The position numbers were made by a program, and so were the translations under genes. Shown piece by piece: positions 7,373 through 31,692 of a stretch of 33,148 nt of DNA; position 1 is the stretch's first letter; every line of letters starts with the position of its first letter. Where the stretch lies: positions 1 to 33,148 of the forward strand of contig CAIOUK010000095.1 of the NCBI GenBank assembly GCA_903861445.1, read 5' to 3'. Source of the DNA: an uncultured Verrucomicrobia subdivision 3 bacterium (GTDB taxonomy: Bacteria; Verrucomicrobiota; Verrucomicrobiia; Limisphaerales; UBA11358). The notes under the pieces were generated by a model. The model made no database searches. It saw only the letters and a list, made by a program, of their open reading frames with translations, and had not been told where the DNA came from.

Positions 7373-7450
7373 CGGGGCGTAGCGTAGCCCGGCTAGCGCG
7401 CTTGCTTGGGGTGCAAGAGGTCGGGAGTTCAAATCTCCCCGCCCCGACCA
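7373..7450 (+). tRNA. tRNA-Pro(GGG), CCA encoded
   Basis: Acceptor CGGGGCG/CGCCCCG, anticodon arm CTTGC-TTGGGGT-GCAAG (anticodon GGG), T arm GGGAG-TTCAAAT-CTCCC, 3' ACCA. Confidence 0.95.
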
Positions 7451-7547: not shown

Positions 7548-7820
7548 ATGGCGCAAGCAATCATGGAACCGGAGAAGGTGCGGCGGTTCGCCGAGGAACT
7601 GCAACGCTTCAACAGCGATCTGGAAAACCGGCTCACGATGCTGCACGCGCGGTTCGCTGCGCTCGGCGACACCTGGTCGGACCAGGAGCACGAGAAATTT
7701 GCCGAGGAGTTCAAGCAGACGATGAAGGCGCTGAAAAAATTCGTCGAGATGTCCAAAGCGCACACGCCGTATCTGCTTCGCAAGGCACAGCGCATCGAGG
7801 AATATCTCAACCAACGCTGA
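7548..7820 (+). CDS. WXG100-like small helical protein (ESAT-6-like fold predicted)
   Basis: 90 aa, helix-turn-helix composition with W-S-D-Q-E-H-E-K-F at the expected turn, the same W-x-[G/D]-x5-[F/Y] spacing as WXG100 proteins. First gene of an operon containing an FtsK/SpoIIIE-type ATPase. Confidence 0.7.
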   Translation: MAQAIMEPEKVRRFAEELQRFNSDLENRLTMLHARFAALGDTWSDQEHEKFAEEFKQTMKALKKFVEMSKAHTPYLLRKAQRIEEYLNQR

Positions 7821-7823
7821 CGC

Positions 7824-8354
7824 ATGGCCGAAAAAGCCCAGATCACTTCCGTCGAGGCCATCGCGGCATTCCGGGCCAAGCTGGTCGTTTATCTGGCGCA
7901 GACGCGTTCTGTGATGGACGAGGTCAGCAACGAGATGTCCCGCGCCCGGCAGTGGTTGCAGGGCGAACAGCGCATGTTTTGGGAACGGGAAATGCGGGTG
8001 CGCGCCCGCCGGCTGGAAGAAGCGAATCAGGAATTGTTCAGCGCCCGGCTTTCCAAAATCGGGGAATCCACCGCGCTGCCTTTGATGGCGGTGCAACGCG
8101 CCCAGCGTGCCGTGCAGGAGGCCGAGGCCAAAATGCGGATATTGAAACGCTGGGACAACGAACTGGAAAATCAGGCTTCGCCGTTGCTGAAGCAGACCGA
8201 GCAGTTGCAGGGATTTCTCGCCGCCGAAATGGTTCATGCCGTCGCCTACTTGGATCAAGTGCTGAAGGCGTTGGACGCTTACCGCAATGTGTCAGCAACG
8301 CGCGGCGACGGCCAAACTCCTGCGGAACCGTCCAAACCGGAGGTCGCGCCATGA
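7824..8354 (+). CDS. coiled-coil hypothetical protein of WXG100/FtsK-type locus
   Basis: 176 aa, almost entirely helical heptad-like sequence with a Pro-rich C-terminal tail. 3 bp after the previous stop; ATGA overlap with the next gene. Confidence 0.75.
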   Translation: MAEKAQITSVEAIAAFRAKLVVYLAQTRSVMDEVSNEMSRARQWLQGEQRMFWEREMRVRARRLEEANQELFSARLSKIGESTALPLMAVQRAQRAVQEAEAKMRILKRWDNELENQASPLLKQTEQLQGFLAAEMVHAVAYLDQVLKALDAYRNVSATRGDGQTPAEPSKPEVAP

Positions 8355-8563
8355 GCATGAGTGGCAACAAAGGCCGGCTGACCGGGCTGACGCGCGAGAT
8401 TTCGCTCGAGTGGGAGGAGACAAAAAATCACTGGCGCGATGCCCGGAGCGCCGAGTTCGACCGCAAATATATGGATGAACTTTCCGATCATGTCAGCCGC
8501 GCGACGCTCGTGCTGGAACAGCTGGAGGAACTTTTGAAAAAAGTCAGGAGCGAATGTGAATAG
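8351..8563 (+). CDS. second small WXG100-like helical protein
   Basis: 70 aa: MSMSGNKGRLTGLTREISLEWEETKNHWRDARSAEFDRKYMDELSDHVSRATLVLEQLEELLKKVRSECE. Contains WRDARSAEF (W-x-D-x5-F). Hidden in the ORF track as the C-terminus of a spurious 385-aa ORF. ATGA overlap upstream, 8-bp overlap downstream. Confidence 0.68.
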   Translation: MSMSGNKGRLTGLTREISLEWEETKNHWRDARSAEFDRKYMDELSDHVSRATLVLEQLEELLKKVRSECE

Positions 8564-11500
8564 CCAGCCCGCCGTCAGAGAAATCATCGTGCTGCTGGAC
8601 GCGCTGAAAAGCGCTGTCCGCGAATTTGTCGCGCGCGAGGAAAAGTTGGAGAGTGATTTCCGCGTCCAGTCCGCCGCCCTGACCAACGCTCTCGCAGCGC
8701 AAACTGAAGCGCAGACCGCAGCAGCGTATGAGCAGGAGGTGGCGGCGTTTGCCGCGCTGATTGCGAACAAAGACCGGCTGCAGGCGCGGTTTGAGCAGCG
8801 CAAGCTGCGCATCACGCGCGCACATTCGGTCGTCAGCCAGCGGGTGACAGAGGCTATCGGCGATTGCGACGCCGAATGGAAGGATCGCACACAACTGGGC
8901 GTGCAGGCGGCGGAAGTTCACCGCGACGAGGAGCTTGTTCGCGTCACGACGGAGTATAATAATTTCCAGCAAAACCTTGCCGTCGCCGGTGAGGAACTGG
9001 CGCGGATCGAGGCGGCGGCACGCAGGAAATTTCGCGGCTACGGAAAATTTCGGCGGATGTTGGCACCCGACCGTCCGTGGCCGGAATCGGATTTGAAGCC
9101 AGATCACAATGGACTTTTCGGCGAACTGCAAAAGCTGCAAACGAAAACCACCGACAATCTAAAACGCTTCGGAAAATTTCCGCTGCCGGTGGTTTTCAAG
9201 TTTCTGCCCATCTGGCTGGTGTCGGTCCTGCTGCTCGGCGGCTCGGCGGCGAATCCGGTGCTGGAGCATTTTCAACGGCACGACGTCACGCGTCTTCAAT
9301 CCGGTGTGGCGCTGGCGGCATTTTTCATTGTCGCGGTGATTTATTTTATCGGCGGCCGCGCCGCCGCGCCGCTCGCCACAACCATTGCCGGCGACGTGGC
9401 CAGGATGCGCCGGCTGTTTGACACCTGCATTGAAAAATCCGCCGCATATCTCCAGTCGGAGCAGGCGCGGATTCATAACGAATTTGAAACGGCCAAACAA
9501 AATTTCAATCAAGAATGGCGGCAGGCCGTTCGCGACATCAGTCAGTCGCGCAGCAGCAATGCGACGCTCATCAGCGAGAAGGCGTCGCGGCTCATCCAGA
9601 AAAACCAGCAGTGGCGCGGCGTGGAACTGGAGAAAATCCAGCAGCACCACGCCGAAGCTTTGGCGTGCTTGAAAGCAGAAGATACCGCGCAAGTTCGGAA
9701 AATTACCGAGGCGCACCAGACCAAAATGGCGCAAGCCGAGGCCGTTCACCAGCATCGCTGGCAGGAATTGGAAGCGGACTGGAAGAATCAACTCACGCCG
9801 CTCTGCGAGCAGTTGCGCGCCGCCAACGAAATTGCCGGGCAAATATTTCCGGCGTGGGACGATGCGATCTGGAAAAACTGGACGCCGCCGACCGCCTTTC
9901 AAAACGCCGCGAAATTCGGGCGGTTGGAAACGGGCGTGGACAAATTGTTCGAGGCATTGCCGAAAGACGCGCGCCTTAAATGGCCGGGGCCGACGACGGT
10001 TTGCGCCCCGCTGTCACTGGTGTTTCCAACGCAAGGCTCCATTTTGTTCGAGTCCGGCAAGACCGGCGGCGACGAGGCGTTTGGTGCGATTAACAACATT
10101 ATTTTCCGGCTGCTGGCCACCACGCCGCCGGGTAAATTGAATTTCACGATTTTTGATCCGGTCGGTCTCGGCCAGAATTTCGCCGCGCTGACACACCTGA
10201 CGGATTACGACGAAAGCAGTATCAATAGCCGCATCTGGACGCAGCCGGCGCAGTTCGAGGAAAAGCTCGCGGAGCTGAACGAGCACATGGAGAAAATCAT
10301 CCAAATGTATCTCCGCAACGAATACGCGACCATCGCGGAATACAACGCGCAGGCCGGCAGCGTGGCGGAGAAATATCATTTCCTCGTCATCGCGTCGTTT
10401 CCGGTGAACTTCACTGAGGCGGCGGCGAAGCGGCTGCGCAACATCGCCGCGAACGGCGCGCGCTGCGGCGTGTTCACGCTCATTCACTGGGATCAGCGGA
10501 GTCCGCTGCCGCAGGATTTTGTGCCGGACGAGTTGCGCAAAAATAGTGTGTGCGTCGTTCGCAAAGAGCGCGGGTTTGAGCTGGCTAATTGGAGTTCGCC
10601 GGGTGTGAAATTAATTTTTGATGCGCCGCCGCCGCCGGAATTCGCCACGGATTTTCTCCAGCGCATCGGCGAGGGCAGCAAGGGCGCGAACCGCGTTGAG
10701 GTGCCGTTCGAGCAGATTGCGCCGGCAGAACCGGATTTTTGGAAAGAGGAAACCACCGAACTTTTGCGCGTGCCGATCGGCCGTTCCGGCGCGACCAAAA
10801 TGCAGTATCTCGAAATCGGCAGCGGCACACGGCAGCACGCGCTGCTCGCGGGCAAGACCGGCTCCGGCAAATCCACTTTGTTTCACGTCATCATCACCAA
10901 CCTCGCGCTGCGGTGCAGCCCGGACGAAGTGGAATTTTATCTGGTGGATTTCAAGAAGGGCGTCGAGTTCAAATGCTACGGTAGCCGTCGGTTGCCGCAC
11001 GCGAAAGTGGTGGCGGTCGAGAGCGACCGGGAATTTGGCTTGAGTGTTTTGCAGCGCGTGGACGAGGAATTGCGCCGGCGTGGAGATTTATTTCGTAAAG
11101 TGGGCGCGCAGGATCTGGCGGGCTATAAACGGGCGCGTGGCACCGAGCCGATGCCGCGCGTGCTGTTGATGATTGACGAGTTTCAGGAATTTTTCACCGA
11201 GGAAGACCGCGTGTCGCAGGGCGCGGCGGTGCTGATGGATCGCATTGTGCGCCAGGGCCGCGCGTTTGGCATACATGTGATTCTCGGCTCGCAGACGCTC
11301 GGCGGCGCGTTCACGCTCGCGCGCGCGACCATCGGGCAGATGGTCATCCGCATCGCGCTCATGTGCAACGAGGCCGACGCCTATCTCATCATGGATCAGG
11401 ACAACCCCGCGCCGCGTCTGCTTTCGCGTCCGGGTGAAGGCATTTACAACGATGCCGCCGGTTCCATCGAAGGCAACTCACCGTTCCAAACGGTCTGGCT

Positions 11501-12419
11501 GTCGGACAAAACGCGCGACAACTATCTGGCAAAAATCCGCGCGCGCGCAGATGAAAATGAGGAACGCTATCCCGGTCCGATTGTGTTTGAAGGCAACGCG
11601 CCGGCGGATGTGCGGGAAAATATTCCGTTGCGGTTGGCGCTGCAAAAAGTCGTAACGCAAACGCCTGTGCAAGCCGCCGCGTGGCTGGGTGCGCCGAATT
11701 CCATCAAAGGCCCGACCGAGGCGATTTTTCGGCGGCAGAGCGGCGGTAATTTGCTTATCGTCGGCCAGAGCGAAGAGCGCACCACGACCATGCTCGCGGT
11801 GTCGCTGGTTTCTTTGGCGGCGCAATTTCCGAAAGGCGGCGCGCGGTTTATGGTTTTGGATAGCACGCCGGCGGGATTTTCACAGCGGGAGTTTCTGGAG
11901 CAAATCGTGAAGTCGGTGCCGCATGAAACCATTCAAGGCGGCAACGGCAATCTCGCGGAAGTGATGGCCGGTTTGGCGGAGGAATTAAAACGGCGTGCGG
12001 AAAATGAGTCAACCGTCCCAGAGATTTTTGTGCTGATCCAGGGTTTGCAAAATTTCAAGAAGCTGCGGGCGGAAGACGAATTTAGTTTTTCCAGCGGCGG
12101 TGGCGACGCGCCGACACCGGCGGCGATTTTACTAAATCTTATTACCGAAGGCTCGGCGCGCGGGATTCACGTCATCGTCACCTGTGACACTTACAATAAC
12201 GTGAGCCGCTATCTCGGCCGGAAAACGTTGAGCGAATTTGAAATGCGCGTGGTGTTCCAGATGAGTGCGAGCGACTCGGCCAGTTTGATTGACGCGCCGA
12301 ACGCCAGCGCGCTCGGCCTGAACCGCGCGCTATTTTACAACGACCGCGAAGGCAGCCTCGAAACTTTCCGGCCCTACGCGCAGCCGGACGGCGATTGGGT
12401 GGCAAGTCTGGTGCGTTAG
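8556..12419 (+). CDS. FtsK/SpoIIIE-type multi-ATPase membrane protein, EccC-like (type VII secretion-like)
   Basis: 1287 aa, GTG start. N-terminal coiled coil, two TM segments (FKFLPIWLVSVLLLGGSAA, GVALAAFFIVAVIYFIGG), Walker A GKTGSGKST at 10851-10877, Walker B RVLLMIDE at 11157-11180. Degenerate P-loop-like sites at ~10053 (SGKTGGDEA) and ~11763 (GQSEERTT). Confidence 0.85.
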   Translation: MNSQPAVREIIVLLDALKSAVREFVAREEKLESDFRVQSAALTNALAAQTEAQTAAAYEQEVAAFAALIANKDRLQARFEQRKLRITRAHSVVSQRVTEAIGDCDAEWKDRTQLGVQAAEVHRDEELVRVTTEYNNFQQNLAVAGEELARIEAAARRKFRGYGKFRRMLAPDRPWPESDLKPDHNGLFGELQKLQTKTTDNLKRFGKFPLPVVFKFLPIWLVSVLLLGGSAANPVLEHFQRHDVTRLQSGVALAAFFIVAVIYFIGGRAAAPLATTIAGDVARMRRLFDTCIEKSAAYLQSEQARIHNEFETAKQNFNQEWRQAVRDISQSRSSNATLISEKASRLIQKNQQWRGVELEKIQQHHAEALACLKAEDTAQVRKITEAHQTKMAQAEAVHQHRWQELEADWKNQLTPLCEQLRAANEIAGQIFPAWDDAIWKNWTPPTAFQNAAKFGRLETGVDKLFEALPKDARLKWPGPTTVCAPLSLVFPTQGSILFESGKTGGDEAFGAINNIIFRLLATTPPGKLNFTIFDPVGLGQNFAALTHLTDYDESSINSRIWTQPAQFEEKLAELNEHMEKIIQMYLRNEYATIAEYNAQAGSVAEKYHFLVIASFPVNFTEAAAKRLRNIAANGARCGVFTLIHWDQRSPLPQDFVPDELRKNSVCVVRKERGFELANWSSPGVKLIFDAPPPPEFATDFLQRIGEGSKGANRVEVPFEQIAPAEPDFWKEETTELLRVPIGRSGATKMQYLEIGSGTRQHALLAGKTGSGKSTLFHVIITNLALRCSPDEVEFYLVDFKKGVEFKCYGSRRLPHAKVVAVESDREFGLSVLQRVDEELRRRGDLFRKVGAQDLAGYKRARGTEPMPRVLLMIDEFQEFFTEEDRVSQGAAVLMDRIVRQGRAFGIHVILGSQTLGGAFTLARATIGQMVIRIALMCNEADAYLIMDQDNPAPRLLSRPGEGIYNDAAGSIEGNSPFQTVWLSDKTRDNYLAKIRARADENEERYPGPIVFEGNAPADVRENIPLRLALQKVVTQTPVQAAAWLGAPNSIKGPTEAIFRRQSGGNLLIVGQSEERTTTMLAVSLVSLAAQFPKGGARFMVLDSTPAGFSQREFLEQIVKSVPHETIQGGNGNLAEVMAGLAEELKRRAENESTVPEIFVLIQGLQNFKKLRAEDEFSFSSGGGDAPTPAAILLNLITEGSARGIHVIVTCDTYNNVSRYLGRKTLSEFEMRVVFQMSASDSASLIDAPNASALGLNRALFYNDREGSLETFRPYAQPDGDWVASLVR

Positions 12420-20222: not shown

Positions 20223-20792
20223 ATGATTTTGGTTTTGGACAACTACGATTCGTTCACCTACAACCTCGTCCAGTATCTCGGCGAACTGGGAGCGGACTTG
20301 CAGGTGCGGCGCAACGACGAGATTTCGCTCGACCAAATCCGCGCGCTCAAGCCCGAACGCATCCTCGTCTCGCCCGGCCCGTGTTCGCCGCGCGAAGCGG
20401 GTTTATCCAACGACGTCATCAAGACTTTCGCCAGCGAAGGAATTCCGATTTTCGGCGTCTGCCTCGGCCACCAATGCATCGGGCACACCTTTGGCGCGGA
20501 GGTCGTGGTGAATTACCGCATGATGCACGGCAAAGTTTCGCCGATTAAGCACAATGGCAAAGATTTGTTCACGGGAATGCCGAATCCATTTCTGGCGACG
20601 CGCTATCATTCGCTCGTCATCAAGCGCGACACGATTCCCGATTGCCTCGAAATCACCGCCGAGACGGACGAAGGCGAAATCATGGGCGTGAAACACAAGA
20701 CGCTGCCGATCTGGGGCGTGCAGTTCCATCCCGAAAGCATTTTGACCGAAAGCGGCCGCACGATTCTGAAAAACTTTCTGAAACTGAAATAA
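20223..20792 (+). CDS. trpG: glutamine amidotransferase, anthranilate/aminodeoxychorismate synthase component II
   Basis: [71 protein letters not shown]. trpG versus pabA cannot be decided from sequence alone. Confidence 0.93.
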
Positions 20793-20798
20793 TCCACC

Positions 20799-21161
20799 AT
20801 GCAGATTCATTTGCTCAAATCCAAGATTCACCGTGCCACCGTCACCGGCGGCGACGTGAATTACGAAGGCAGCCTGACCATTTCCGCCGACCTTATGGAG
20901 AAATGCGGCTTGCAGGAATACGAAAAAATTCTTTGCGGCAACATGGCCAACGGCAACCGGTGGGAGACCTACGCCATTCGCGGCAAAAAAGGCACGGGCG
21001 AAATCATCATGAACGGCGCGGTTGCCCATCTCGGCAAAAAAGGCGACGTGCTGACCATTATGAACTTCGCGGCTGTCAGCCAAAAGAAGGCGAAGAAATG
21101 GAAGCCACGCGTGATTGTCCTTGGCAAGGGAAATAAAATTTTGAGCACGCGCGGCATCTGA
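20799..21161 (+). CDS. panD: aspartate 1-decarboxylase
   Basis: 120 aa; KSKIHRATVTGGDVNYEGSLTISADLMEKCGL with the pyruvoyl self-cleavage site G-S; NGNRWETYAIRGKKGTGEIIMNGAVAHLGKKGD. Confidence 0.95.
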   Translation: MQIHLLKSKIHRATVTGGDVNYEGSLTISADLMEKCGLQEYEKILCGNMANGNRWETYAIRGKKGTGEIIMNGAVAHLGKKGDVLTIMNFAAVSQKKAKKWKPRVIVLGKGNKILSTRGI

Positions 21162-21273
21162 ATTGTGTGCAGGCGCCCCTCTACGTCTAGTTTTCGGTGA
21201 CAGACTGCGAGTGGATGGCGGCTTATTTTTTAAGCAGACGCTCATTCCACCAGCAAAGCATTGTTGCCATAAT

Positions 21274-24039
21274 ATGTCTATCAGCCGAATTAAACTGTTC
21301 ACCCTTTCGGTTCTTCTAGTCTCATCGTTGACTGCACTACATGCCGCCGAGGTTGGCGGTTTACACTGCGAATACCTTACCGATCTTTTGGGCGTTGACA
21401 CGCCGCAACCGCGATTGAGTTGGCTGCTGGAATCCACCCAACGTGGCGAATGCCAGACGGCGTATCAGGTGTTGGTCGCTTCGTCGCCGGAACGGCTCGG
21501 TCATGATAAGGGAGATTTGTGGGATAGCGGCAAGGTGGCGTCCGACCAGAGCATCCAAGTGAAATATGCGGGTAAGCCTTTGAGCAGCCGTCAGCCCTGT
21601 TATTGGAAGGTGCGTGTCTGGGACAAAAACGGCCGCGCCTCTGATTGGAGCCAGCCGGCGTTTTGGACCATGGGGCTGCTGGCCGACAAGGACTGGCGCG
21701 GTCGCTGGATTGCGTCCGATCTGGAGCTGATGGATTATCAAAAAGAACTACGCGCGCTGACGGATTTTGGGATGGAAGATGAGAAAGTTATCTGGGACCT
21801 GGCCAAAAAAATCCGACCAAAGCTGGCCAGCGTGACCAATGCTCCGGCGATCTGTTTGCGCAAGGAGTTTGACACGCCCAAAACCATTCGCCGCGCGGTG
21901 GTTTCGGTTTCCGGACTCGGCGTCTTTGAGCTTTACCTGAACGGTCAGCGCGTCGGCGATCATCAACTGGATCCGGCCTACACGGATTACCAAAAAAGGG
22001 TTTTGTATGTTACACACGATGTCACGGCCCTGCTGCGACCGGGGCGCAATGCGCTGGGGGTCGTGCTCGGTAACGGTTGGTTCAATCTGATCACTCCTCA
22101 TGTGCTGCGCTTTTACGCCGCTGATTACATTGCGCCGCCGCAACTGCGGCTCGACCTCGACTTGGAATTCACCGATGGCTCGCACGAATTTATCGGCAGT
22201 GACGAGAGTTGGAAGTTCACGACCGACGGCCCAATCCGTTTTAACTGCGTGCTGGCCGGTGAAACCTATGACGCCCGCAAGGAAATGCCGGGCTGGGCCG
22301 AGGCGGGTTTCGACGACGCGCAATGGAAGCCGGCCAAGTCCGCGTCCGCGCCGGACGGCCGCCTGTTTAGCCAGCAAGTGCGCCCGGTGCGCAAGGTGCA
22401 AACGCTGCCGGCCGTGAGCGTGAAAAAAGTAAAAGGAGTCTGGCGTTTTGACCTCGGTGTGGAAACGACCGGCTGGGCCAAGGTGCGCGTGAAGGGTAAA
22501 CCCGGCCAGGTCGTCACCATCCGATTACCCGGCTCTGATTCGCACACGCTCGGTCGCTACCAGACGAGCAAATACATCCTGCGCGGCGGCGATTATGAAG
22601 AATTTGAACCGCGCTTTTGCTACGCGGGTTTCCGTTATGTGGAGGTGGCCGGACTGGATTATCAACCCGCGCTGACTGATTGCGTGGGACAGCAGGTTTG
22701 CACGGATCTGGAACCGGCGGGCAGCTTCGCGTGTTCCGATGAGCGTCTCAACCGACTTCAGACCATCCTGCTGCGAACCTTGCGGAATTACATCGTCCAC
22801 ATTCCCAATGATCCAACCCGCGAAAAGGCGGGCTGGACGCAAGATATTGAAAACGGTTTCTTTGAAACAGCGCTCAACTTCAACGCGGTGACAATGTATG
22901 CCAAGTGGCAGCATGATTTTCTCGATGCCATTCACCCCAATGGCTACATGCCGCCCGTCGTGCCCGGCCGGTTTGACGGCCCGACCATCAACGGCCCGTG
23001 GTGGGGCGGCGTGGTGATTTACGCGCCTTGGTATATGTATGAGTTCTATGGCGACCGCGAAATCCTCGCCGAGAGTTATCCCGCCATGAAGGCGCAATTT
23101 AATTATCTCGGCTCGCTCGCGACCAATCATGTCGTGCGTTGGGGATTGGGCGACTGGCTTGAAGTGGGCAGTGTCCGTCCGGTGCGCACTCCGATCCCGC
23201 TCACCTCAACCTGTGCTTATTATTGGTTCGCCTGCATTCTGCGCGACACCGCCAACCTGCTGAATCGGCCGGAGGAAGCCAAGCACTTTGCCGCCGAAGC
23301 CGAGGCCATTTGCGCCGCCTACAACCGCGAATTCTTCAATTCCAAAACTGGCGACTATGCCAGCGGCAGCCAGACCTGCCAGCTCGTGTCGCTGGTATTC
23401 GGACTGGTGCCGGAAGCGCAGCGCGAATGGGTCAAGCAGCGTCTGGCCGAACGCATTGCTAAAGACAAAGACCACCTCACCACCGGCTTCGTCGGCACAC
23501 CGCTGCTGCTGACCGGCCTGACGGACTTGGGCCTACCTGGACTCGCCTGGAACATCGCCACGCAAACAAATTATCCGAGTTTCATTGACGCGGTTCTGAA
23601 TCGCGGCAACAGCGTCATGAAGGAGGATTGGAAAGGCGGTTTGGTGCAGATGCCGTCGTTACAGGGGCCGATTGGCACCTGGTTTTATCATTCGCTGGCC
23701 GGCATTCGACTCGACCCGCAAGCGCCCGGCTTCAAGCGTATTATCATCAAGCCAGAAATCGCCAACAATCTGACATGGGTTCAGGCCCATCATGATTCCC
23801 CCTATGGTCGCATTGTTAGCAACTGGAAACGCGAGGGACAAAAATTAACGATGGAGGTGACGATTCCCGCCAACACCACCGCGACGGTGTATGTGCGGGC
23901 GCGGGATGCGGCGTCCGTCACCGAATCCAACAAACTTGCCAGTGAAACAACGGGCGTGAAATTCTTACGAACAGAGAATAACGCGGCGGTCTATGCGGTC
24001 GGCTCGGGAACTTACCGGTTCCAGTCCACGCTTCCGTGA
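21274..24039 (+). CDS. GH78 alpha-L-rhamnosidase
   Basis: Signal peptide from MSISRIKLFTLSVLLVSS; N-terminal GH78-type domains, DPTREKAGWTQD catalytic-region motif, C-terminal GH78 beta-sandwich. Start placed at 21274 rather than 21163. Confidence 0.9.
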   Translation: MSISRIKLFTLSVLLVSSLTALHAAEVGGLHCEYLTDLLGVDTPQPRLSWLLESTQRGECQTAYQVLVASSPERLGHDKGDLWDSGKVASDQSIQVKYAGKPLSSRQPCYWKVRVWDKNGRASDWSQPAFWTMGLLADKDWRGRWIASDLELMDYQKELRALTDFGMEDEKVIWDLAKKIRPKLASVTNAPAICLRKEFDTPKTIRRAVVSVSGLGVFELYLNGQRVGDHQLDPAYTDYQKRVLYVTHDVTALLRPGRNALGVVLGNGWFNLITPHVLRFYAADYIAPPQLRLDLDLEFTDGSHEFIGSDESWKFTTDGPIRFNCVLAGETYDARKEMPGWAEAGFDDAQWKPAKSASAPDGRLFSQQVRPVRKVQTLPAVSVKKVKGVWRFDLGVETTGWAKVRVKGKPGQVVTIRLPGSDSHTLGRYQTSKYILRGGDYEEFEPRFCYAGFRYVEVAGLDYQPALTDCVGQQVCTDLEPAGSFACSDERLNRLQTILLRTLRNYIVHIPNDPTREKAGWTQDIENGFFETALNFNAVTMYAKWQHDFLDAIHPNGYMPPVVPGRFDGPTINGPWWGGVVIYAPWYMYEFYGDREILAESYPAMKAQFNYLGSLATNHVVRWGLGDWLEVGSVRPVRTPIPLTSTCAYYWFACILRDTANLLNRPEEAKHFAAEAEAICAAYNREFFNSKTGDYASGSQTCQLVSLVFGLVPEAQREWVKQRLAERIAKDKDHLTTGFVGTPLLLTGLTDLGLPGLAWNIATQTNYPSFIDAVLNRGNSVMKEDWKGGLVQMPSLQGPIGTWFYHSLAGIRLDPQAPGFKRIIIKPEIANNLTWVQAHHDSPYGRIVSNWKREGQKLTMEVTIPANTTATVYVRARDAASVTESNKLASETTGVKFLRTENNAAVYAVGSGTYRFQSTLP

Positions 24040-24216
24040 ATGAAATATTCTCGAGTAAAAAACTAGGCGTGGCAGATAACAAAACGTTAACGCCAGACTG
24101 ACAAAGTCCTCACAACTAAAAAACAAAGTGCTAAAATAATGATACAAAAGTTACCCGTGCCCGCCCCACGGGCTATGGATTAAAAGGTCCCACTTGCTCA
24201 TGTAAATATTTCAATC

Positions 24217-27195
24217 GTGAAACGAACTATTCAGATCATCATCGGAGCAGCTCTTCTTGCCCTCACCGCCTTCAGCCACGCTGCGCTGCCAGTGGTCACG
24301 GTGAACACGCTAGAGGATTGCAATGTCGTCTGGGACTCGCCCAGCAGGGATTCCTTTGGCTCGATGCCGTTGGGCAACGGAGACGTCGGGCTGAATGTGT
24401 GGGTCGAGGAGAACGGAGACCTGGTGTTTTACATCAGCAAAATAGGCGCGTTCGACGCCGGGCATTCGCTGCCGAAACTCGGACGCGTGCGGGTGCGGTT
24501 CGCGCCGGCGCTCGACGTGAAAGACTTCCGGCAGTCGCTGGTGCTGCGCGATGCAGCCATCGCAATCAAGGCCGGCGATGTCAATCTGAAGGTATGGGTG
24601 GATGCCAACGCGCCGGTGATTCGCGTGACGGGCAGCAGCGCGACCCCGCGCACCGCCACCATTGCCGTTGAACCGCTCCGGGCGCTGGCCAACGCAGAGT
24701 CCGCACTTCCGTCCAAGGGCACACCCGGGGTGATCTTCAATGACAAAGTGGACCGGCTCGCCTGGTGCTACCGCAACCAATCGTCGGACTGGGCAAAGAA
24801 GCTCGCGTCGCAGAACACGCCGGACTTGGTCGCCAAGATCAAGGATCCGATTCTGCATCGCACTTCCGGCTGCGTGTTGCAGGCTCAAGGGTTTGTGCGT
24901 GAGAATCGGACTACCTTGAAAACAAAAGCGCCAGCAACGACCTATGATTGCTCGGTGCGCGTGCTTTCCAACCAACCGGAGAGCGTCCAGGAATGGCTGT
25001 CCGCTGCGGAGCAACCGGTGAAATCCGACTGGAATGCGCATCAGGTTTACTGGAATTCCTTTTGGAATCGCAGCCATATTTTTGTCACGGGCTGCGGTTC
25101 GGGCTCGATCAATCTTGACCAATACCGCTTCACTCAGTTTTCCATTGGCTCGAAAGCCTACGAGGGACACAAAGAAATTCCAGCCGTCAAGAACGCTTTC
25201 CAGCTTAGTCAGCGCTATGCGTTGGAGCGATTCTGCGAAGCTATCGCCAGCCGTGGCGAGGTGCCTCCGCCATTCAACGGCTCGATCTTCACCATGGACA
25301 TGCCCGCCGGCGTGATGAGTTTTAGCGGGCCGAAGAAGGGCGTGTCTTCCGCCGATGGCCGCGATTGGGGATTTCTCCCCTTCATGTGGCAGAACACGCG
25401 CCATCCCTATTGGGCGATGGCCACTCGCGGCGACTATGACACGCTCTGTCCCGGCATGCAGTTCGTGCGCGACGGACTCGATGTCTGCCGCGACCGCTGC
25501 CGGAAACAATTCGGCATTGACGGTGCCTTCATCAATGAGGCCAGCCTGTGGTATAATGTCGGCTCGTTCGGTGGGGCCGGGCCGGCGCATCTCCGCTATC
25601 ACCAACTTGCCACCGTCGAATTGCCCTGCATCATGGCCGAAACCTACGAGCACACGCGCGATCGGAAATTCCTGAATGAAATTCTACTGCCGTGTGCGGA
25701 CGACTTCATTGCCTATTACGCGAACCGTTTTCCCAAGCGCGACGCCAACGGCAAGATGCTGATGGAGAAGGTCGGTTGCGTCGAGACCTATCAGGGTGTC
25801 AACAATCCCTGCACCGAGATCGGCGGCCTAAAATTCCTACTGACCAAGTTGCTTACCTTTGAAATTAACGACGTCCGCCCCGCAAAATGGAGCCAGTTGT
25901 TCGCCGCGATGCCAGACGTGCCGACGCGCCGGATTCGCGGTATGGATCTGCTGTCCGTCGGGGATGTGTATGAGCCTGGCCGTTCCGATTGCGAGACTCC
26001 AGAGTTGTATTCGGTTTATCCATTCCGCCAAGCGTGGCTCGGCACCCCGGCGAAGCTCGCTCTGGCTCGGCAATCTTTCCACGTCCGCAACGTCTCGCTC
26101 GACGGCACGGTGGACTCCCAGCCGGTGGAAACCGGTGGTTGGCAGGCTGCACCCGTCCAAGCCGCCTATCTCGGATTGCCGCGTGAGGCGGCGCGTCTGG
26201 CGAGCATCAACTTCAACGACGCGTTCATCAATTGGTGCGAGAACTTTGAACCCAACACGCCGTTTCCGAACCGTCCGCGCGCCCGTTTCCCGGCCTTCTG
26301 GGAGTGCAAGATGGATTACACGCCGGACAACGACCACGGCGCGAACTCCGTGAACACTTTGCAGAGTATGCTGCTCCAGAGCGATGGTAAAAAAATCCTG
26401 CTGCTTCCGGCCTGGCCGGAGGACTGGGATGTTTCGTTCAAACTGTGCGCCGCCGACAATACCACCGTTGAGTGCGAATATCGCAACGGCAAGGTGCAAT
26501 CGTTGAAGGTGACGCCGGCGTCGCGGAAAGCGGATATCGTGGATATGGCATCGTCGGAAAACCGCATCCGCACGCTGGTAGAGATTGCCTGCGCGGATCG
26601 CAACTATCTGTTCAATCTACCGCCGATGCTCGATGCCCAGCCGAAGCCGGGCCCGGCAACGGAGGCGTGGCTGAAGAAATACGGGGAATGTCTGGAAGGG
26701 ACCAAGGCTGGGCCGTGGGAAAACTGCCTATTCAAGGGACGCACGCTCTATGTCTTCGCCTTTGACGGAAAGCGGGCATCCGCACCGCGTGTCGCCGCGA
26801 CGGTTCTCAAACAGAATTATCTCACCGGAGAAACTGAAAAGCCTGTGAGCATCCTTAAAGTGGATTATGACTGCGATCTCAATTCGCTGGCGCAGACAGC
26901 TCCCTCGATGGGATCGTTCAAAGCCATCAGGACTGGAACCACTCTTGATTTCGGCCAGCCGCAAACTTTTGACCGGCTTGAATTCACCATTGATAATCCC
27001 GGCCACCGTCGAGGACAGGCTAATGCTTTCGCGCTGCAAGCCCAACAGCCGGATGGCTCCTGGAAAACCGTCCACAACGGGAAAGTCTATGGAATAATTT
27101 ACGCCAAGCGCTTCGCGCCGGTGACCGCCCAAAAGCTGCGCCTCAACATCGACGCTCCCGTAAGCCAGTTCGACATCTTTCCCCCGGGGAAGTGA
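24217..27195 (+). CDS. DUF5703 domain-containing, GH95-like (alpha/alpha)6 hydrolase with C-terminal discoidin-like segment
   Basis: Signal peptide; VVWDSPSRDSFGSMPLGNGDVGLNVWVEENGDLVFYISKIGAFDAG resembles the GH95/DUF5703 N-terminal domain. C-terminal TTLDFGQPQTFDRLEFTIDNPG...QKLRLNIDAP resembles an F5/8 type C-like fold. Confidence 0.78.
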   Translation: MKRTIQIIIGAALLALTAFSHAALPVVTVNTLEDCNVVWDSPSRDSFGSMPLGNGDVGLNVWVEENGDLVFYISKIGAFDAGHSLPKLGRVRVRFAPALDVKDFRQSLVLRDAAIAIKAGDVNLKVWVDANAPVIRVTGSSATPRTATIAVEPLRALANAESALPSKGTPGVIFNDKVDRLAWCYRNQSSDWAKKLASQNTPDLVAKIKDPILHRTSGCVLQAQGFVRENRTTLKTKAPATTYDCSVRVLSNQPESVQEWLSAAEQPVKSDWNAHQVYWNSFWNRSHIFVTGCGSGSINLDQYRFTQFSIGSKAYEGHKEIPAVKNAFQLSQRYALERFCEAIASRGEVPPPFNGSIFTMDMPAGVMSFSGPKKGVSSADGRDWGFLPFMWQNTRHPYWAMATRGDYDTLCPGMQFVRDGLDVCRDRCRKQFGIDGAFINEASLWYNVGSFGGAGPAHLRYHQLATVELPCIMAETYEHTRDRKFLNEILLPCADDFIAYYANRFPKRDANGKMLMEKVGCVETYQGVNNPCTEIGGLKFLLTKLLTFEINDVRPAKWSQLFAAMPDVPTRRIRGMDLLSVGDVYEPGRSDCETPELYSVYPFRQAWLGTPAKLALARQSFHVRNVSLDGTVDSQPVETGGWQAAPVQAAYLGLPREAARLASINFNDAFINWCENFEPNTPFPNRPRARFPAFWECKMDYTPDNDHGANSVNTLQSMLLQSDGKKILLLPAWPEDWDVSFKLCAADNTTVECEYRNGKVQSLKVTPASRKADIVDMASSENRIRTLVEIACADRNYLFNLPPMLDAQPKPGPATEAWLKKYGECLEGTKAGPWENCLFKGRTLYVFAFDGKRASAPRVAATVLKQNYLTGETEKPVSILKVDYDCDLNSLAQTAPSMGSFKAIRTGTTLDFGQPQTFDRLEFTIDNPGHRRGQANAFALQAQQPDGSWKTVHNGKVYGIIYAKRFAPVTAQKLRLNIDAPVSQFDIFPPGK

Positions 27196-27301
27196 ATTGG
27201 GAATGAAGAAACGGCGAAACTTGGTGATACGAACTTTATAATTTTTAGATTCTCGCACTTTACCAAATGTCCTCAATTAACGCACAATAGGAAAATTCCA
27301 C

Positions 27302-30300
27302 GTGAAAAAATTTAACAAACTTACATTTCTCACACTTGCCGCCCTGCTGCTGTCGCTGACCGAACTGCAGGCCGCCGCCCTGAAACATCTTCGCTGTGAA
27401 TACGTCGCCAATCCATTTGGCATTGACGCGATGCAGCCGCAATTGAGTTGGGTGATAGAATCCGACCGGCGCGGCGAGCGGCAGACGGCGTATCAGGTTT
27501 TGGTCGCTTCGTCGCCGGAACTGCTCGGTCAAGATCAGGGGGATTTGTGGGATAGCGGGCAGGTAAAATCCGATCAGAGTATCCATGTTGAATACGCTGG
27601 CAAACCGCTGGCTTCACGGATGAGTTGCTATTGGAAAGTGCGCGTCTGGGATCAGCACGAGAAGTCGTCAGATTGGAGCCAGCCAGCGTCCTGGACGATG
27701 GGCTTGCTCAATCCGACGGATTGGCAGGCGAAGTGGATCACGGCGTCGAAGTGGTTTATGCCGCCAAAAGTTCGGCCCAGTGGTTTGGTCGTCAGTGCCG
27801 GCGGCTGGGCCGATGTGGATTTGGGCGCGGCGCTGCCCATTGACGAAGTCCGGCTTTATTTTGCCAGCTCCAATTCCGCCCCGACGCGGTTTCTGATTGA
27901 AAGCGCGGACGAGCCACAATTTTATCATCCGCAAATTCTCGTGGATCGTTCGACTGAGGATTTTCAGTCTGTTGGAACCGGTGCCCAGGTGTTTCCGGTG
28001 AAGAACACGACGGCACGCCATATTCGTCTTCGGATTACTGGCGTGCGCGGCAAAGGCAGGGCGGTGGTGCGCCAGATGGAAGTAATTTCGGGTGGCCGGA
28101 ACGTGGCCCTGATGCGACCCACGCGGGAAAAAGGCACGGGATGGAGCGGTGGCCACGCGCCCTTCCTGGTGGATGGTATGCCCTCGGCCAACGACGGCAA
28201 GGAGTGTTCACCGGAGGCGTGTCCGACCACCACCGCGCCTTTGCTGCGCAAAACATTTTCGCTATCGAAGCCGGTCAAGCGTGCCACGCTGTATGTCGCC
28301 GCGCTCGGCATGGCCGATGTCACCATCAATGGCCGGTCGGTGACTGACACCGTGCTGGGGCCGCCGTTCACGGATTACACGAAACGAGTGGTTTATCTCA
28401 CGCATGATATAACAACATTGCTGGCCAAAGGGGAGAACGTGATTGGAGCAACGCTGGGCAACGGATTTTTCAGCCCGCCCAGTAAAGGCTTTGGCGAGCG
28501 TCACGGCGGCAACGGTCCGGTGCGGGTGTTGATTCAAACTGAAATTGAGTATGCGGATGGCAGTCGCCAAACCATTCTCTCGGATGAAACTTGGAAATGG
28601 ACGCGGAGCGAGATTGTGAGCAACGACCCTTTTGGTGCTTATACCGAGGATCGCCGGGAGGCCAAGCCGGGTTGGAATTGTTCCGGTTATGATGACCACG
28701 GCTGGCAGCCGGTCGCGGTCACCCAAGCACTTAGCAGAAAACTCGTGTCGCCCATAGGGCCGCCGATTCGTGTGGTAGGCGAACTCAAGCCGGATTGGGT
28801 GGAGGGTAACAGAGCCTTCTTCAAGGTCTTGACCGCCGGTTGGCCGCGGGTGCAAGTAAACGGCCACGCCGGACAAACCATCACCATCCTCGGCCACGCC
28901 CCTAAATATAACGCGCCGTCACTCACCTTCACGCTGGCGACGAATGGTCTGACCGTGTTGGAACCACGTTTCATGTATCTCTCCGGTCCGCTGGAGATCG
29001 AGGTAAAAGGATTGTCCGAGCCGCTCGCGCCAGACGCGGTGACAATCCAACTTGTCCGCGCCGATCTGAAAATGGCTGGCAGCTTTTCCTGCTCCAATCC
29101 GTGGTTTAACCAAATCTACGCGGCGCTTTTACAAACCCATCTCAACTACGACGGCGATCAACCGATGGATCCGATGCGCGAGAAAGAAGGCTGGACACAG
29201 GACGCGCAGGGAATGTTCGAGACAGCGGCGTATCTGACCGACGTGGCTGGCATCTATCGCAAATGGGAGCGGGATTTCGCGGATGGCCAGGACGAATCCG
29301 GCTACCTTAGCTCCGTGCTGCCGCTGGTGGGCCGGCAGGCGTATGATTGGAATTCACCGTGGTGGAGTGGCGTGGTGGTGCTGTTGCCGTGGCAGCATTA
29401 TCAATATTACGGCGACCGCCGGATGCTCGCCGAAAGTTACGACACCATGCGTCGCTATGTGGACTTTCTCGGAAAATTGACAGCGAGCGGCTCAGTGCGG
29501 GGCTGGTCTGATTATCCGTATTTGAGCGGTGGAAACACAAATTCCTCGGAAGCCAAAGAAGGCATCCTGAGTTGGTGGGGTGCCGGTGATTGGATGAACC
29601 CCTATGGCGGCAAGAACGCTGTGTCGGCCTCGCTGTTGGATATGCCGGCGTGGTCTTATTATGCAACCATCGTTAGTGACACCGCGGCTTTACTTGGCAA
29701 GAAAGAGGACGCGGAAAAATATGCGGCCATCGCCGAGGGAGTGAAGAACCGCTTCAACAAAAGATTCCTCAATCGCGAAACCGGCCTTTATGGCGATCAT
29801 GCGGACAGCCAGACGGCGCAAGTATTGCCGCTCGCTTTGGGTGTTGTGCCGGTTGCCCAGCGCGAATTGACGTATCAGCGATTGCTGGATGCGATTCATG
29901 CCCGCAAGGATCATTTGGGAACCGGTTTTGTCGGCTTGCCTTTTCTGCTTTCGACCTTGGCCAGTCACCGTGAGACAGCACTGGCCAACAAAATCGTGAA
30001 CCAACAGGATTATCCCAGTTGGAAAACCTTGATTCACGACGGCGTTCTCGGCGAGGACTGGAAAGGCGGCGGCGCGCAGATGCCGTCCTGCGGCGGCGCG
30101 ATTGGTATGTGGCTTTATCAGTCTGTCCTGGGTATTCGTCCTGATCCTGCCGGACCCGGTTTCAAAAAATTTATTCTGGCGCCGCAACCCGACCCAACCA
30201 GCGGTCTGACTTCGGCGCGCGGTAGTTACGATTCTCTCCATGGACGCATTGTGAGTGATTGGCTGTGTGAAAATGGACGTTTCACCCTTCACGCTGTCAT

Positions 30301-30472
30301 TCCGCCTAATACCACGGCAACCATCTTCGTTCCGGCCAAGGATGCCGCCGGGGTGACCGAATCCAGCGAGCAAGCCAATAAGGCCGAAGGTGTAAAATTC
30401 CTGCGAATGGAAAACAGCATCGCCGTCTATGCCGTGGAGTCAGGAGATTACCGGTTCCAGTCCAAATTTTAG
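27302..30472 (+). CDS. GH78 alpha-L-rhamnosidase with inserted carbohydrate-binding-like domain; paralog of the 21274 gene
   Basis: N- and C-termini align with the 21274..24039 product (QTAYQVLVASSPE.LG...GDLWDSG; NTTATIFVPAKDAAGVTES...GVKFLRMENSIAVYAVESGDYRFQS). PMREKEGWTQD catalytic-region motif. Extra discoidin-like segment encoded at ~27770-28240. Confidence 0.9.
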   Translation: MKKFNKLTFLTLAALLLSLTELQAAALKHLRCEYVANPFGIDAMQPQLSWVIESDRRGERQTAYQVLVASSPELLGQDQGDLWDSGQVKSDQSIHVEYAGKPLASRMSCYWKVRVWDQHEKSSDWSQPASWTMGLLNPTDWQAKWITASKWFMPPKVRPSGLVVSAGGWADVDLGAALPIDEVRLYFASSNSAPTRFLIESADEPQFYHPQILVDRSTEDFQSVGTGAQVFPVKNTTARHIRLRITGVRGKGRAVVRQMEVISGGRNVALMRPTREKGTGWSGGHAPFLVDGMPSANDGKECSPEACPTTTAPLLRKTFSLSKPVKRATLYVAALGMADVTINGRSVTDTVLGPPFTDYTKRVVYLTHDITTLLAKGENVIGATLGNGFFSPPSKGFGERHGGNGPVRVLIQTEIEYADGSRQTILSDETWKWTRSEIVSNDPFGAYTEDRREAKPGWNCSGYDDHGWQPVAVTQALSRKLVSPIGPPIRVVGELKPDWVEGNRAFFKVLTAGWPRVQVNGHAGQTITILGHAPKYNAPSLTFTLATNGLTVLEPRFMYLSGPLEIEVKGLSEPLAPDAVTIQLVRADLKMAGSFSCSNPWFNQIYAALLQTHLNYDGDQPMDPMREKEGWTQDAQGMFETAAYLTDVAGIYRKWERDFADGQDESGYLSSVLPLVGRQAYDWNSPWWSGVVVLLPWQHYQYYGDRRMLAESYDTMRRYVDFLGKLTASGSVRGWSDYPYLSGGNTNSSEAKEGILSWWGAGDWMNPYGGKNAVSASLLDMPAWSYYATIVSDTAALLGKKEDAEKYAAIAEGVKNRFNKRFLNRETGLYGDHADSQTAQVLPLALGVVPVAQRELTYQRLLDAIHARKDHLGTGFVGLPFLLSTLASHRETALANKIVNQQDYPSWKTLIHDGVLGEDWKGGGAQMPSCGGAIGMWLYQSVLGIRPDPAGPGFKKFILAPQPDPTSGLTSARGSYDSLHGRIVSDWLCENGRFTLHAVIPPNTTATIFVPAKDAAGVTESSEQANKAEGVKFLRMENSIAVYAVESGDYRFQSKF

Positions 30473-30570
30473 AGTGAACTATCGAATGCAATATCTAGTA
30501 AGATAATCATAGACATGGTTGTTCAGACGGATACGAATCAAATTCCAAAAGTAAAGTATCGTTGCAAAAC

Positions 30571-31692
30571 ATGACTATGAGGTATCTGCCATTATTCGCC
30601 CTCTCGGCCTTTCTGTTGACGTCGTTGGCCAGCACGACTCAGACTTTCGCATCGCCCTCGTTAAAGCTGGAGCTAGTAAAAACTGAAGAACTTCCCGTCA
30701 TTGGTTCCTCGCATCCCGATACCAAAGATATTCTGGGTGGATTCGAGGCAGGCACGACCGTGAAGCTCACCATCAACGGAAAGACCGACTATCACATGGT
30801 CACCTCGACTTTGGAAGAGCCGGGCTGGAAACACATGAGAACCGAGCATTGGGTCTCGGAAGATGGATTGAAGTGGCGGCGGCACAAGGTCTTATTTTAT
30901 CCGCGTTATAATCCTGACATCAGGTTGTGGGAGTTGACCGGCAGCCCCTTTTTCTTTTTCGATGAAAAAGCGGATCGCTGGTTTATTTACTTCAATTATA
31001 TGGCGCTCAATGGCGTCAGGGGCTGGTGCACTCCCTGCTTGCTCCGGCGGTCGGCCGCCAAAACGAAAGGGGTGGACGGAATCAACGGGGATTTTGAATT
31101 TCCCGGAGAAATTGTTGCGCCCAGCGGCATCGCTCATCCCACAGATGCTTACGCGTCAAGTATCAGTCCGCCATACAAGGCTGCTGATGGCAATTGGTAT
31201 GCTTTCCTGGGCGGTGGCCCCAAAGCCTTTAATGCTGTATCGGGAAAATGGTGGGTAACAATTGTTAAGGCGAAAGATCCCGGCGGCCCTTTCGTCTATA
31301 TGCCGGAATATGCCCCTGTTCCATTCATGAATCCGACCGGCTTTGTCGAGAATCCTCTGATAACTAGAATAAAGGGGCCAGTGACCGGCAAAGAATATTG
31401 GACGGTCATCTTTGATTTTCTGAAACCCGAAGTTACCACCGGGAAAAATTCCACGATTGGATTCAGCTATTCCGAAGACGGATTGAAATGGCCGGTGGAA
31501 AACGCCCAGATTATCAACATGGAGGCAGGACTCCCAAAAGGCTCGGAGCCATGGTGGCGAGCCATTCGAGTTCCCCACCAACTTTGCGACGAAGGAAATG
31601 GAATTTACACCTGTTTTTTTTCAGCCTACGACCGAAAAGGAAATTACGAAAGCATCGGAAAAGCGACGTTTAGAATAAAAGAAACCAAGTGA
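30571..31692 (+). CDS. secreted five-bladed beta-propeller-like protein, possible glycosidase (GH43/GH117-like fold)
   Basis: Signal peptide (MTMRYLPLFALSAFLLTSLASTTQTFA); repeated SEDGLKW, FFFFDEKADRWFIYF, GKEYWTVIFDF segments typical of propeller glycosidases. Family not certain. Confidence 0.6.
   Translation: MTMRYLPLFALSAFLLTSLASTTQTFASPSLKLELVKTEELPVIGSSHPDTKDILGGFEAGTTVKLTINGKTDYHMVTSTLEEPGWKHMRTEHWVSEDGLKWRRHKVLFYPRYNPDIRLWELTGSPFFFFDEKADRWFIYFNYMALNGVRGWCTPCLLRRSAAKTKGVDGINGDFEFPGEIVAPSGIAHPTDAYASSISPPYKAADGNWYAFLGGGPKAFNAVSGKWWVTIVKAKDPGGPFVYMPEYAPVPFMNPTGFVENPLITRIKGPVTGKEYWTVIFDFLKPEVTTGKNSTIGFSYSEDGLKWPVENAQIINMEAGLPKGSEPWWRAIRVPHQLCDEGNGIYTCFFSAYDRKGNYESIGKATFRIKETK

What the first reader, a model, noticed from the sequence alone, without database searches (positions are those of the whole stretch)
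7548..12419. Compact type VII secretion-like operon (two WXG100-like proteins + coiled-coil protein + EccC/FtsK-like ATPase) in a Gram-negative-style genome
Seen: four same-strand genes packed with a 3-bp gap, an ATGA overlap and an 8-bp overlap, encoding 90 aa, 176 aa, 70 aa and 1287 aa proteins. The large one has coiled coil, two TM segments, and Walker A/B of the FtsK/SpoIIIE type. Established: WXG100 proteins plus an FtsK/SpoIIIE ATPase are the minimal shared core of type VII secretion. WXG100-like proteins have been reported outside Actinobacteria/Firmicutes, so novelty must be checked. Inference: a stripped-down T7SS-like transporter, since no EccB/D/E, EsaA/EssA/EssB, mycosin or obvious toxin is visible in the window and neighbouring genes are unrelated.
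Basis: partly seen in the sequence, partly recalled or inferred. Interest (0 to 1): 0.82.

Follow-up and report, generated by a model that had tools for sequence, protein, structure and literature searches.

The report
Toxin-less Type VII-like operon in Verrucomicrobiota
A compact set of four genes that looks like a stripped-down version of a protein-export machine known mainly from Gram-positive bacteria is conserved, nearly always in the same order, across two phyla of double-membraned bacteria, and unlike some relatives on plasmids it carries no toxin gene.

Summary

Gene 1 is a WXG100 protein (Pfam, above cut-off) and gene 3 a short relative of it. Both carry W-x-D instead of W-x-G, invariant in the family. 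Gene 2 is modelled as a long two-helix hairpin. Gene 4 has two membrane segments and three RecA-like ATPase domains; Foldseek finds EccC/EssC first, far ahead of FtsK. Only its middle ATPase domain keeps Walker motifs (91 of 91 relatives; never in the other two).

81 of 96 fetched loci keep all four genes in order, and no further gene is conserved beside them. In the window's order the ATPase and WXG100 genes occur together in 74 of 146 genomes and apart in 6.

Prior notice: Zhang 2012 mentions solo WXG genes with a middle-active ATPase in planctomycetes and verrucomicrobia. Bell 2024 describes a CoCoNuT-associated version with a coiled-coil nuclease and no membrane segment. A Helicobacter plasmid relative has a nuclease toxin and immunity gene where gene 2 sits.

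Best reading: a membrane-anchored, toxin-less Type VII-like transporter, with two WXG-like adaptors handling a helical-hairpin cargo or scaffold. Secretion itself is unproven.

The parts
7548..7820 (+). gene 1: WXG100 protein, 90 aa, W-x-D motif at residues 43-45; closest solved structures HP0062 (Helicobacter pylori), then EsxB/EsxA
   Evidence: Pfam PF06013 43.2 bits, cut-off 27.3; PDB matches; W-x-D-x5-F in 83 of 83 family rows
7824..8354 (+). gene 2: 176-aa helical protein modelled as one long two-helix hairpin (residues 7-76 and 84-162); cargo or scaffold candidate; no toxin domain
   Evidence: AlphaFold2 mean pLDDT 92.3; no Pfam family; profile matches the N-terminal part of a Rhodococcus plasmid protein at 19.7 bits against a background maximum of 12.6
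8351..8563 (+). gene 3: short WXG100-like protein, 70 aa, W-x-D motif at residues 28-30
   Evidence: hhalign to the gene 1 family, 98.1% probability, E 1.2e-13; W-x-D-x5-F in 86 of 87 family rows
8556..12419 (+). gene 4: 1287-aa membrane-anchored FtsK/SpoIIIE-superfamily ATPase, EccC/EssC-like, three ATPase domains
   Evidence: Pfam FtsK_SpoIIIE 113.8 bits; NCBIfam EccCa 120.9, EssC 102.2, FtsK 30.3; Foldseek top hit EccC 4nh0, E 7.4e-33
9183..9356 (+). two predicted membrane segments of gene 4 (residues 210-228 and about 247-267)
   Evidence: hydropathy; at least two such segments in 73 of 82 full-length family members, none in the Caballeronia, Deinococcus, L051 and L052 relatives
9873..10600 (+). 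first ATPase domain of gene 4, degenerate (no Walker A) but well conserved; borders approximate
   Evidence: canonical P-loop in 0 of 91 members; alpha/beta domain in the model
10851..11183 (+). middle ATPase domain: Walker A GKTGSGKS (10851-10874) to Walker B LLMIDEF (11163-11183)
   Evidence: Walker A identical in 91 of 91, Walker B DE in 91 of 91
11650..12416 (+). third ATPase domain of gene 4, degenerate; borders approximate
   Evidence: canonical P-loop in 0 of 89 members; alpha/beta domain in the model

Best explanation
A self-contained, membrane-anchored, Type VII-like export unit without a toxin. Gene 4 would sit in the inner membrane through two helices, with long coiled coils before and after them, and form a hexameric motor in the cytoplasm in which only the middle ATPase domain hydrolyses ATP; the two degenerate domains would bind cargo or regulate. 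Genes 1 and 3 would be WXG100-like adaptors that bind gene 2, a long helical hairpin, and bring it to the motor, as Lap1 and Lap2 do for LXG domains or PE for PPE proteins. Gene 2 would be the exported cargo or a structural part of the channel. Shown: gene order, homologies, motifs, co-occurrence. Predicted: membrane segments and folds. Inferred: the complex, the hexamer, export, and gene 2 as cargo.
For: WXG100 by Pfam; gene 3 homologous to gene 1; EccC/EssC are the best sequence and structure matches, aligning all three ATPase domains, while FtsK matches one; two membrane segments as in EccC/EssC; middle Walker motifs invariant; four genes hardly ever apart (Fisher p 6e-34); no other conserved neighbour. 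Sister loci put a coiled coil plus nuclease in the slot of gene 2: Helicobacter plasmid, WHH/colicin-DNase 44.6 bits followed by a SUKH immunity protein; Caballeronia plasmid, whose arrangement matches the coiled-coil/D-ExK nuclease cassette of PMC11090510. Analogy: two WXG100-like factors bind the LXG domain and are needed for export (PMC9600955).
Against: No YxxxD/E signal in genes 1 or 3 (0 of 79, 0 of 82). No EccB/D/E, EssA/EssB/EsaA or outer-membrane component nearby. A tree of the middle domain does not place gene 4 with EccC/EssC. No experimental data on secretion. The link between gene 2 and toxin trafficking domains rests on one weak match (Rhodococcus), not seen with Helicobacter or Caballeronia.
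Confidence: 0.55

Rival explanations
1. A conflict (defence) device rather than a secretion system: the ATPase, its coiled coils and the small helical proteins would form a membrane-attached complex that reacts to phage or stress, as proposed for relatives next to CoCoNuT and TerY-P genes.
For: The sister operon on the Caballeronia plasmid lies among VWA, CARF, PP2C, kinase and AAA genes, as described for type III-A CoCoNuTs (PMC11090510); the Rhodococcus relative lies near TerD genes. Weak PADLOC matches of gene 4 to SspH and mad8, both through the ATPase domain.
Against: The four-gene family has no conserved defence neighbour in about 90 loci, carries no nuclease, and occurs in over half of the genomes of the order, more than expected of a mobile defence cassette.
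Confidence: 0.2
2. A system for the cell envelope or cell body: gene 4 and the helical proteins assemble or position an envelope structure in Verrucomicrobiota and Planctomycetota, without releasing protein to the outside.
For: Mostly one WXG100 gene per genome and no toxin beside it; long helical stretches on both sides of the membrane segments; found here in the Planctomycetota-Verrucomicrobiota group.
Against: A close relative with recognisable cargo carries a toxin; patchy even inside the genus (2 of 4 other genomes lack it), so not essential for the envelope.
Confidence: 0.15
3. A DNA-translocating ATPase of the FtsK or conjugation type with unrelated small genes beside it.
For: The middle domain belongs to the FtsK/SpoIIIE superfamily, and the tree does not exclude grouping with FtsK and a conjugation-like ATPase (support 83/90).
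Against: Three ATPase domains in an EccC-like row, 102-121 bits to EccC/EssC models against 30 to FtsK, strict linkage to two WXG100-like genes; the genome has its own separate FtsK-type gene.
Confidence: 0.05

Closest known systems
'Solo WXG' loci with a YueA-like ATPase whose middle domain alone is active (Zhang et al. 2012, PMC3482391, Table 1 footnote 6)
   Same: WXG gene plus three-domain FtsK/HerA ATPase with only the middle domain active; planctomycetes and verrucomicrobia are named
   Different: The footnote gives no anatomy and calls them mobile; the passages read mention neither the hairpin gene, the second WXG-like gene nor membrane anchoring. Here the unit is widespread within an order and has no conserved mobile context
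EssC-like/WXG100 cassette of type III-A CoCoNuTs (Bell et al. 2024, PMC11090510)
   Same: Two WXG100-like proteins, a coiled-coil protein between them, and a three-domain ATPase with only the centre active and an N-terminal coiled coil
   Different: That cassette has a nuclease fused to the coiled coil, a DNA-mimic gene and VWA genes, and its ATPase lacks membrane helices; here two membrane segments are present and nuclease, DNA mimic and VWA are absent
T7SSa/T7SSb and subtypes T7SSc-j (PMC11217815)
   Same: EccC/EssC (TsxC)-type ATPase plus WXG100 protein; three ATPase domains and two membrane segments as in EccC/EssC
   Different: Those were described only in Actinomycetota and Bacillota and have further membrane components; active-domain pattern and WXG motif differ
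HP0062 of Helicobacter pylori (PDB 3fx7; PMC3397514)
   Same: Best PDB match of gene 1; helical hairpin with W-R-D in the bend, encoded near an FtsK/SpoIIIE-domain gene, in a Gram-negative
   Different: Function unknown; match of only 25 bits
LXG effector with Lap1 and Lap2 (PMC9600955)
   Same: Two WXG100-like small proteins plus an elongated helical protein of about 180-200 residues
   Different: No sequence similarity shown; gene 2 has no toxin domain; no FxxxD in gene 1

Membership tests
[quoted passage not shown]
   Pfam PF06013 43.2 bits against cut-off 27.3
Type VII secretion system (T7SS) | EccC/EssC-type ATPase with three tandem domains and two N-terminal membrane helices | tested here: met
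   Foldseek 4nh0 E 7.4e-33; two membrane segments in 73 of 82 members
Type VII secretion system (T7SS) | match to the curated EccC or EssC models above cut-off | tested here: not met
   120.9 bits against 509; 102.2 against 778; 102.1 against 347
Type VII secretion system (T7SS) | first ATPase domain (D1) catalytic | tested here: inconclusive
   Only the middle domain is canonical here, but by profile it resembles D1 of EccC/YukB (89-109 bits) more than D2 (47-62)
Type VII secretion system (T7SS) | W-x-G motif in the hairpin bend | tested here: not met
   W-x-D in all 83 rows of the gene 1 family; HP0062 also has W-x-D
Type VII secretion system (T7SS) | YxxxD/E export signal on a WXG partner | tested here: not met
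   0 of 79 for gene 1, 0 of 82 for gene 3; 8 of 81 for gene 2
Type VII secretion system (T7SS) | EccB/D/E, or EssA/EssB/EsaA and YukD, encoded with the ATPase | tested here: not met
   no further conserved neighbour in about 90 loci; none among the window genes scanned with Pfam
Type VII secretion system (T7SS) | secretion of WXG100 or effector proteins | not testable with these tools
   needs an experiment
Middle-active WXG/ATPase kind (Zhang 2012; Bell 2024) | only the central ATPase domain has Walker motifs | tested here: met
   91 of 91 for the middle, 0 of 91 and 0 of 89 for the others
Middle-active WXG/ATPase kind (Zhang 2012; Bell 2024) | WXG100-like gene or genes beside the ATPase | tested here: met
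CoCoNuT-associated EssC cassette (Bell 2024) | coiled coil fused to nuclease; VWA and TerY-P neighbours; no membrane helices | tested here: not met
   gene 2 has no Pfam domain; no such neighbours; membrane segments present
FtsK-type DNA translocase | closest to FtsK by model score | tested here: not met
   30.3 bits to FtsK against 102-121 to EccC/EssC models; the tree alone is undecided

The most novel reading that the evidence does not exclude
A chromosomal, toxin-independent Type VII-like secretion system native to diderm Planctomycetota and Verrucomicrobiota, in which the trafficking part of a toxin (gene 2) has become, or always was, the whole cargo or a structural part of the channel, so that four genes suffice to move protein through the inner membrane.
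Probability: 0.3. Interest if true: 0.8.

Novelty: new variant of a known kind. Interest (0 to 1): 0.52.

Why it matters
T7SS is usually described for Actinomycetota and Bacillota, with several membrane partners around the motor. A four-gene unit with the motor, two WXG-like adaptors and one hairpin protein, conserved across two diderm phyla and anchored in the membrane, would be a minimal system in which one can ask what the motor alone does, and whether WXG100 transport is older than its toxins. It also offers a comparison for the CoCoNuT-associated version, whose lack of membrane helices led its describers to suggest a different mechanism.

Tried and rejected
Gene 2 as a WXG100 relative: profile comparison gave 3.8% probability. 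Gene 2 fold against the PDB: only generic coiled coils, nothing at E 0.001 or better. Gene 2 profile against slot-2 proteins of sister loci: only Rhodococcus stands out (19.7 bits; 4193 background ORFs reach 12.6, reversed 9.2, shuffled Rhodococcus 3.3), the others do not. tRNA-linked integration: a tRNA-Pro lies just upstream here, but only 5 of 79 family loci, this one included, have a tRNA within 1.5 kb (a first count failed by a parsing error). Further conserved operon genes: none, the commonest neighbour family is in 8 of 94 loci. Tree placing of gene 4: the middle domain of this family and its sister loci falls with FtsK/conjugation at 83/90 support, grouping with EccC/YukB D1 is not rejected (p 0.21), and the program warned of long branches. 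Anantharaman 2012, cited by PMC11090510, is not in the library.
Full report
What is there. Gene 1 is a WXG100 protein by Pfam, 43.2 bits against a cut-off of 27.3, and its closest solved structures are HP0062 of Helicobacter pylori and EsxB/EsxA proteins. Gene 3 matches no family, but its family profile aligns to that of gene 1 over 66 columns with the motifs in register (98.1% probability, E 1.2e-13). Both families carry W-x-D followed by F eight residues after the W: 83 of 83 rows for gene 1 and 86 of 87 for gene 3. HP0062 has the same W-x-D and is reported near an FtsK/SpoIIIE gene (PMC3397514). Gene 2 matches no family above cut-off and is modelled as one long two-helix hairpin, mean pLDDT 92.3.

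The ATPase. Gene 4 scores 113.8 bits to FtsK_SpoIIIE, and 120.9, 102.2 and 102.1 bits to the EccCa, EssC and EccCb models against 30.3 to FtsK, all below the curated cut-offs of those models. In the PDB its sequence matches EccC at 1.8e-34 and FtsK at 1.6e-9. The model of its last 848 residues (mean pLDDT 85.6) shows three alpha/beta domains; the top eight Foldseek hits are EccC and EssC, from 7.4e-33, before FtsK at 2e-14. TM-scores are low (0.36 to 4nh0), perhaps because the domains are arranged differently, so this supports the three-domain make-up rather than an identical shape. Two hydrophobic segments lie in its first third, and at least two such segments are found in 73 of 82 full-length relatives. 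Walker A reads GKTGSGKS in 91 of 91 relatives in the middle domain, and no canonical P-loop is present in the first (0 of 91) or third (0 of 89) domain.

Conservation. Full-length or near full-length relatives occur in 14 of 288 other Verrucomicrobiota genomes sampled, 78 of 146 genomes of the window's order including its own, and 48 of 343 Planctomycetota (some of these matches are fragments). A scan of 85,000 genomes, limited to the best 80, returned loci named as Verrucomicrobiota or Planctomycetota, apart from a few titled only 'bacterium'. In 81 of 96 fetched loci all four genes stand in the same order and strand. In the order, ATPase and WXG100 occur together in 74 genomes, ATPase alone in 4, WXG100 alone in 2 and neither in 66 (Fisher p 6e-34; genomes are not independent, so the p-value overstates). 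With one exception each genome with WXG100 has a single such gene. No other neighbour is conserved. The window's nearby genes include a tail-specific protease, a methionine sulfoxide reductase, a glycosyl hydrolase, a sugar transporter, a TPR protein and a sulfatase.

Relatives with cargo. At about 30% identity, relatives lie on plasmids. Caballeronia: VWA, WXG100, 436-aa coiled-coil protein, 113-aa gene, 76-aa gene, ATPase, then CARF, VWA, PP2C, kinase, AAA. This is the arrangement Bell et al. describe as a type III-A CoCoNuT extension, with a coiled coil fused to a D-ExK nuclease and a DNA mimic (PMC11090510). Helicobacter sp.: WXG100, a 340-aa protein ending in a WHH/colicin-DNase domain, a SUKH-type immunity protein, a 77-aa gene, ATPase. 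So the slot of gene 2 holds a nuclease toxin, followed by an immunity-type gene, in the Helicobacter relative. In the four-gene family gene 2 usually ends soon after the hairpin; two Planctomycetota-side loci (L131, L162) instead add an Imm33-like domain. Whether gene 2 is homologous to the toxin N-termini is only weakly supported: the Rhodococcus protein scores 19.7 bits to the gene 2 profile, above every one of 4193 background ORFs, but the Helicobacter and Caballeronia proteins do not stand out.

Prior knowledge. Zhang et al. [quoted passage not shown] Bell et al. [quoted passage not shown] that paper is not held here. The 2024 survey of T7SS subtypes covers Gram-positives only (PMC11217815). 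I found no description of the four-gene unit, its membrane anchoring, or its wide presence within an order. Searches covered open-licence papers only, so absence is not proof.

Mechanism. The most economical reading is a membrane-anchored motor served by two WXG-like adaptors that handle a helical-hairpin protein. The nearest experimental parallel is Lap1, Lap2 and the LXG domain in T7SSb (PMC9600955), a parallel of form, not of sequence. Against a plain T7SS label stand the W-x-D motif, the missing YxxxD/E signal, the missing partner proteins and the unresolved tree. It may well work like a T7SS motor with its substrates; it should not be filed as a T7SSa or T7SSb.

Verdict. Real, strongly conserved, correctly read in outline; a variant of a kind noticed in passing in 2012 and 2024. 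Interest 0.52.

Noticed in passing
L134:6746-11148 (Helicobacter sp. NHP19-012 plasmid): WXG100, coiled-coil protein with C-terminal WHH/colicin-DNase domain (44.6 bits), SUKH-type immunity protein, 77-aa gene and middle-active ATPase: a candidate nuclease toxin/immunity pair in a Gram-negative Type VII-like operon.
   Followed up: partly
L131:5811-6884 and L162:5-1027: Gene 2 homologues with an added C-terminal Imm33-like domain (30.6 and 32.8 bits, cut-off 27).
   Followed up: partly
L051:5395-10778 and L052:7789-12556: Divergent operons in Verrucomicrobiota resembling the Caballeronia/CoCoNuT-type cassette (coiled-coil nuclease-like protein 39-47% identical to it); G212 carries this as a second system beside the four-gene one.
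   Followed up: partly
L048:6817-10665: ATPase of the family with none of the three small genes found beside it; sulfate adenylyltransferase-type genes lie upstream.
   Followed up: no
L065, upstream of 8004: Genes 2-4 present but no WXG100 gene found within the locus.
   Followed up: no
L135:7489-12919 (Rhodococcus plasmid): Similar gene set in a different order, ATPase first and WXG100-like gene last, near TerD genes; the coiled-coil protein has an unidentified C-terminal domain.
   Followed up: partly
window 7373-7450: tRNA-Pro (GGG) 97 bp upstream of gene 1; tRNA proximity is not general in the family (5 of 79).
   Followed up: yes
window 20223-31692: Further + strand genes (189, 120, 958, 992, 1056 and 376 aa ORFs) after a sulfatase gene, not examined.
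   Followed up: no
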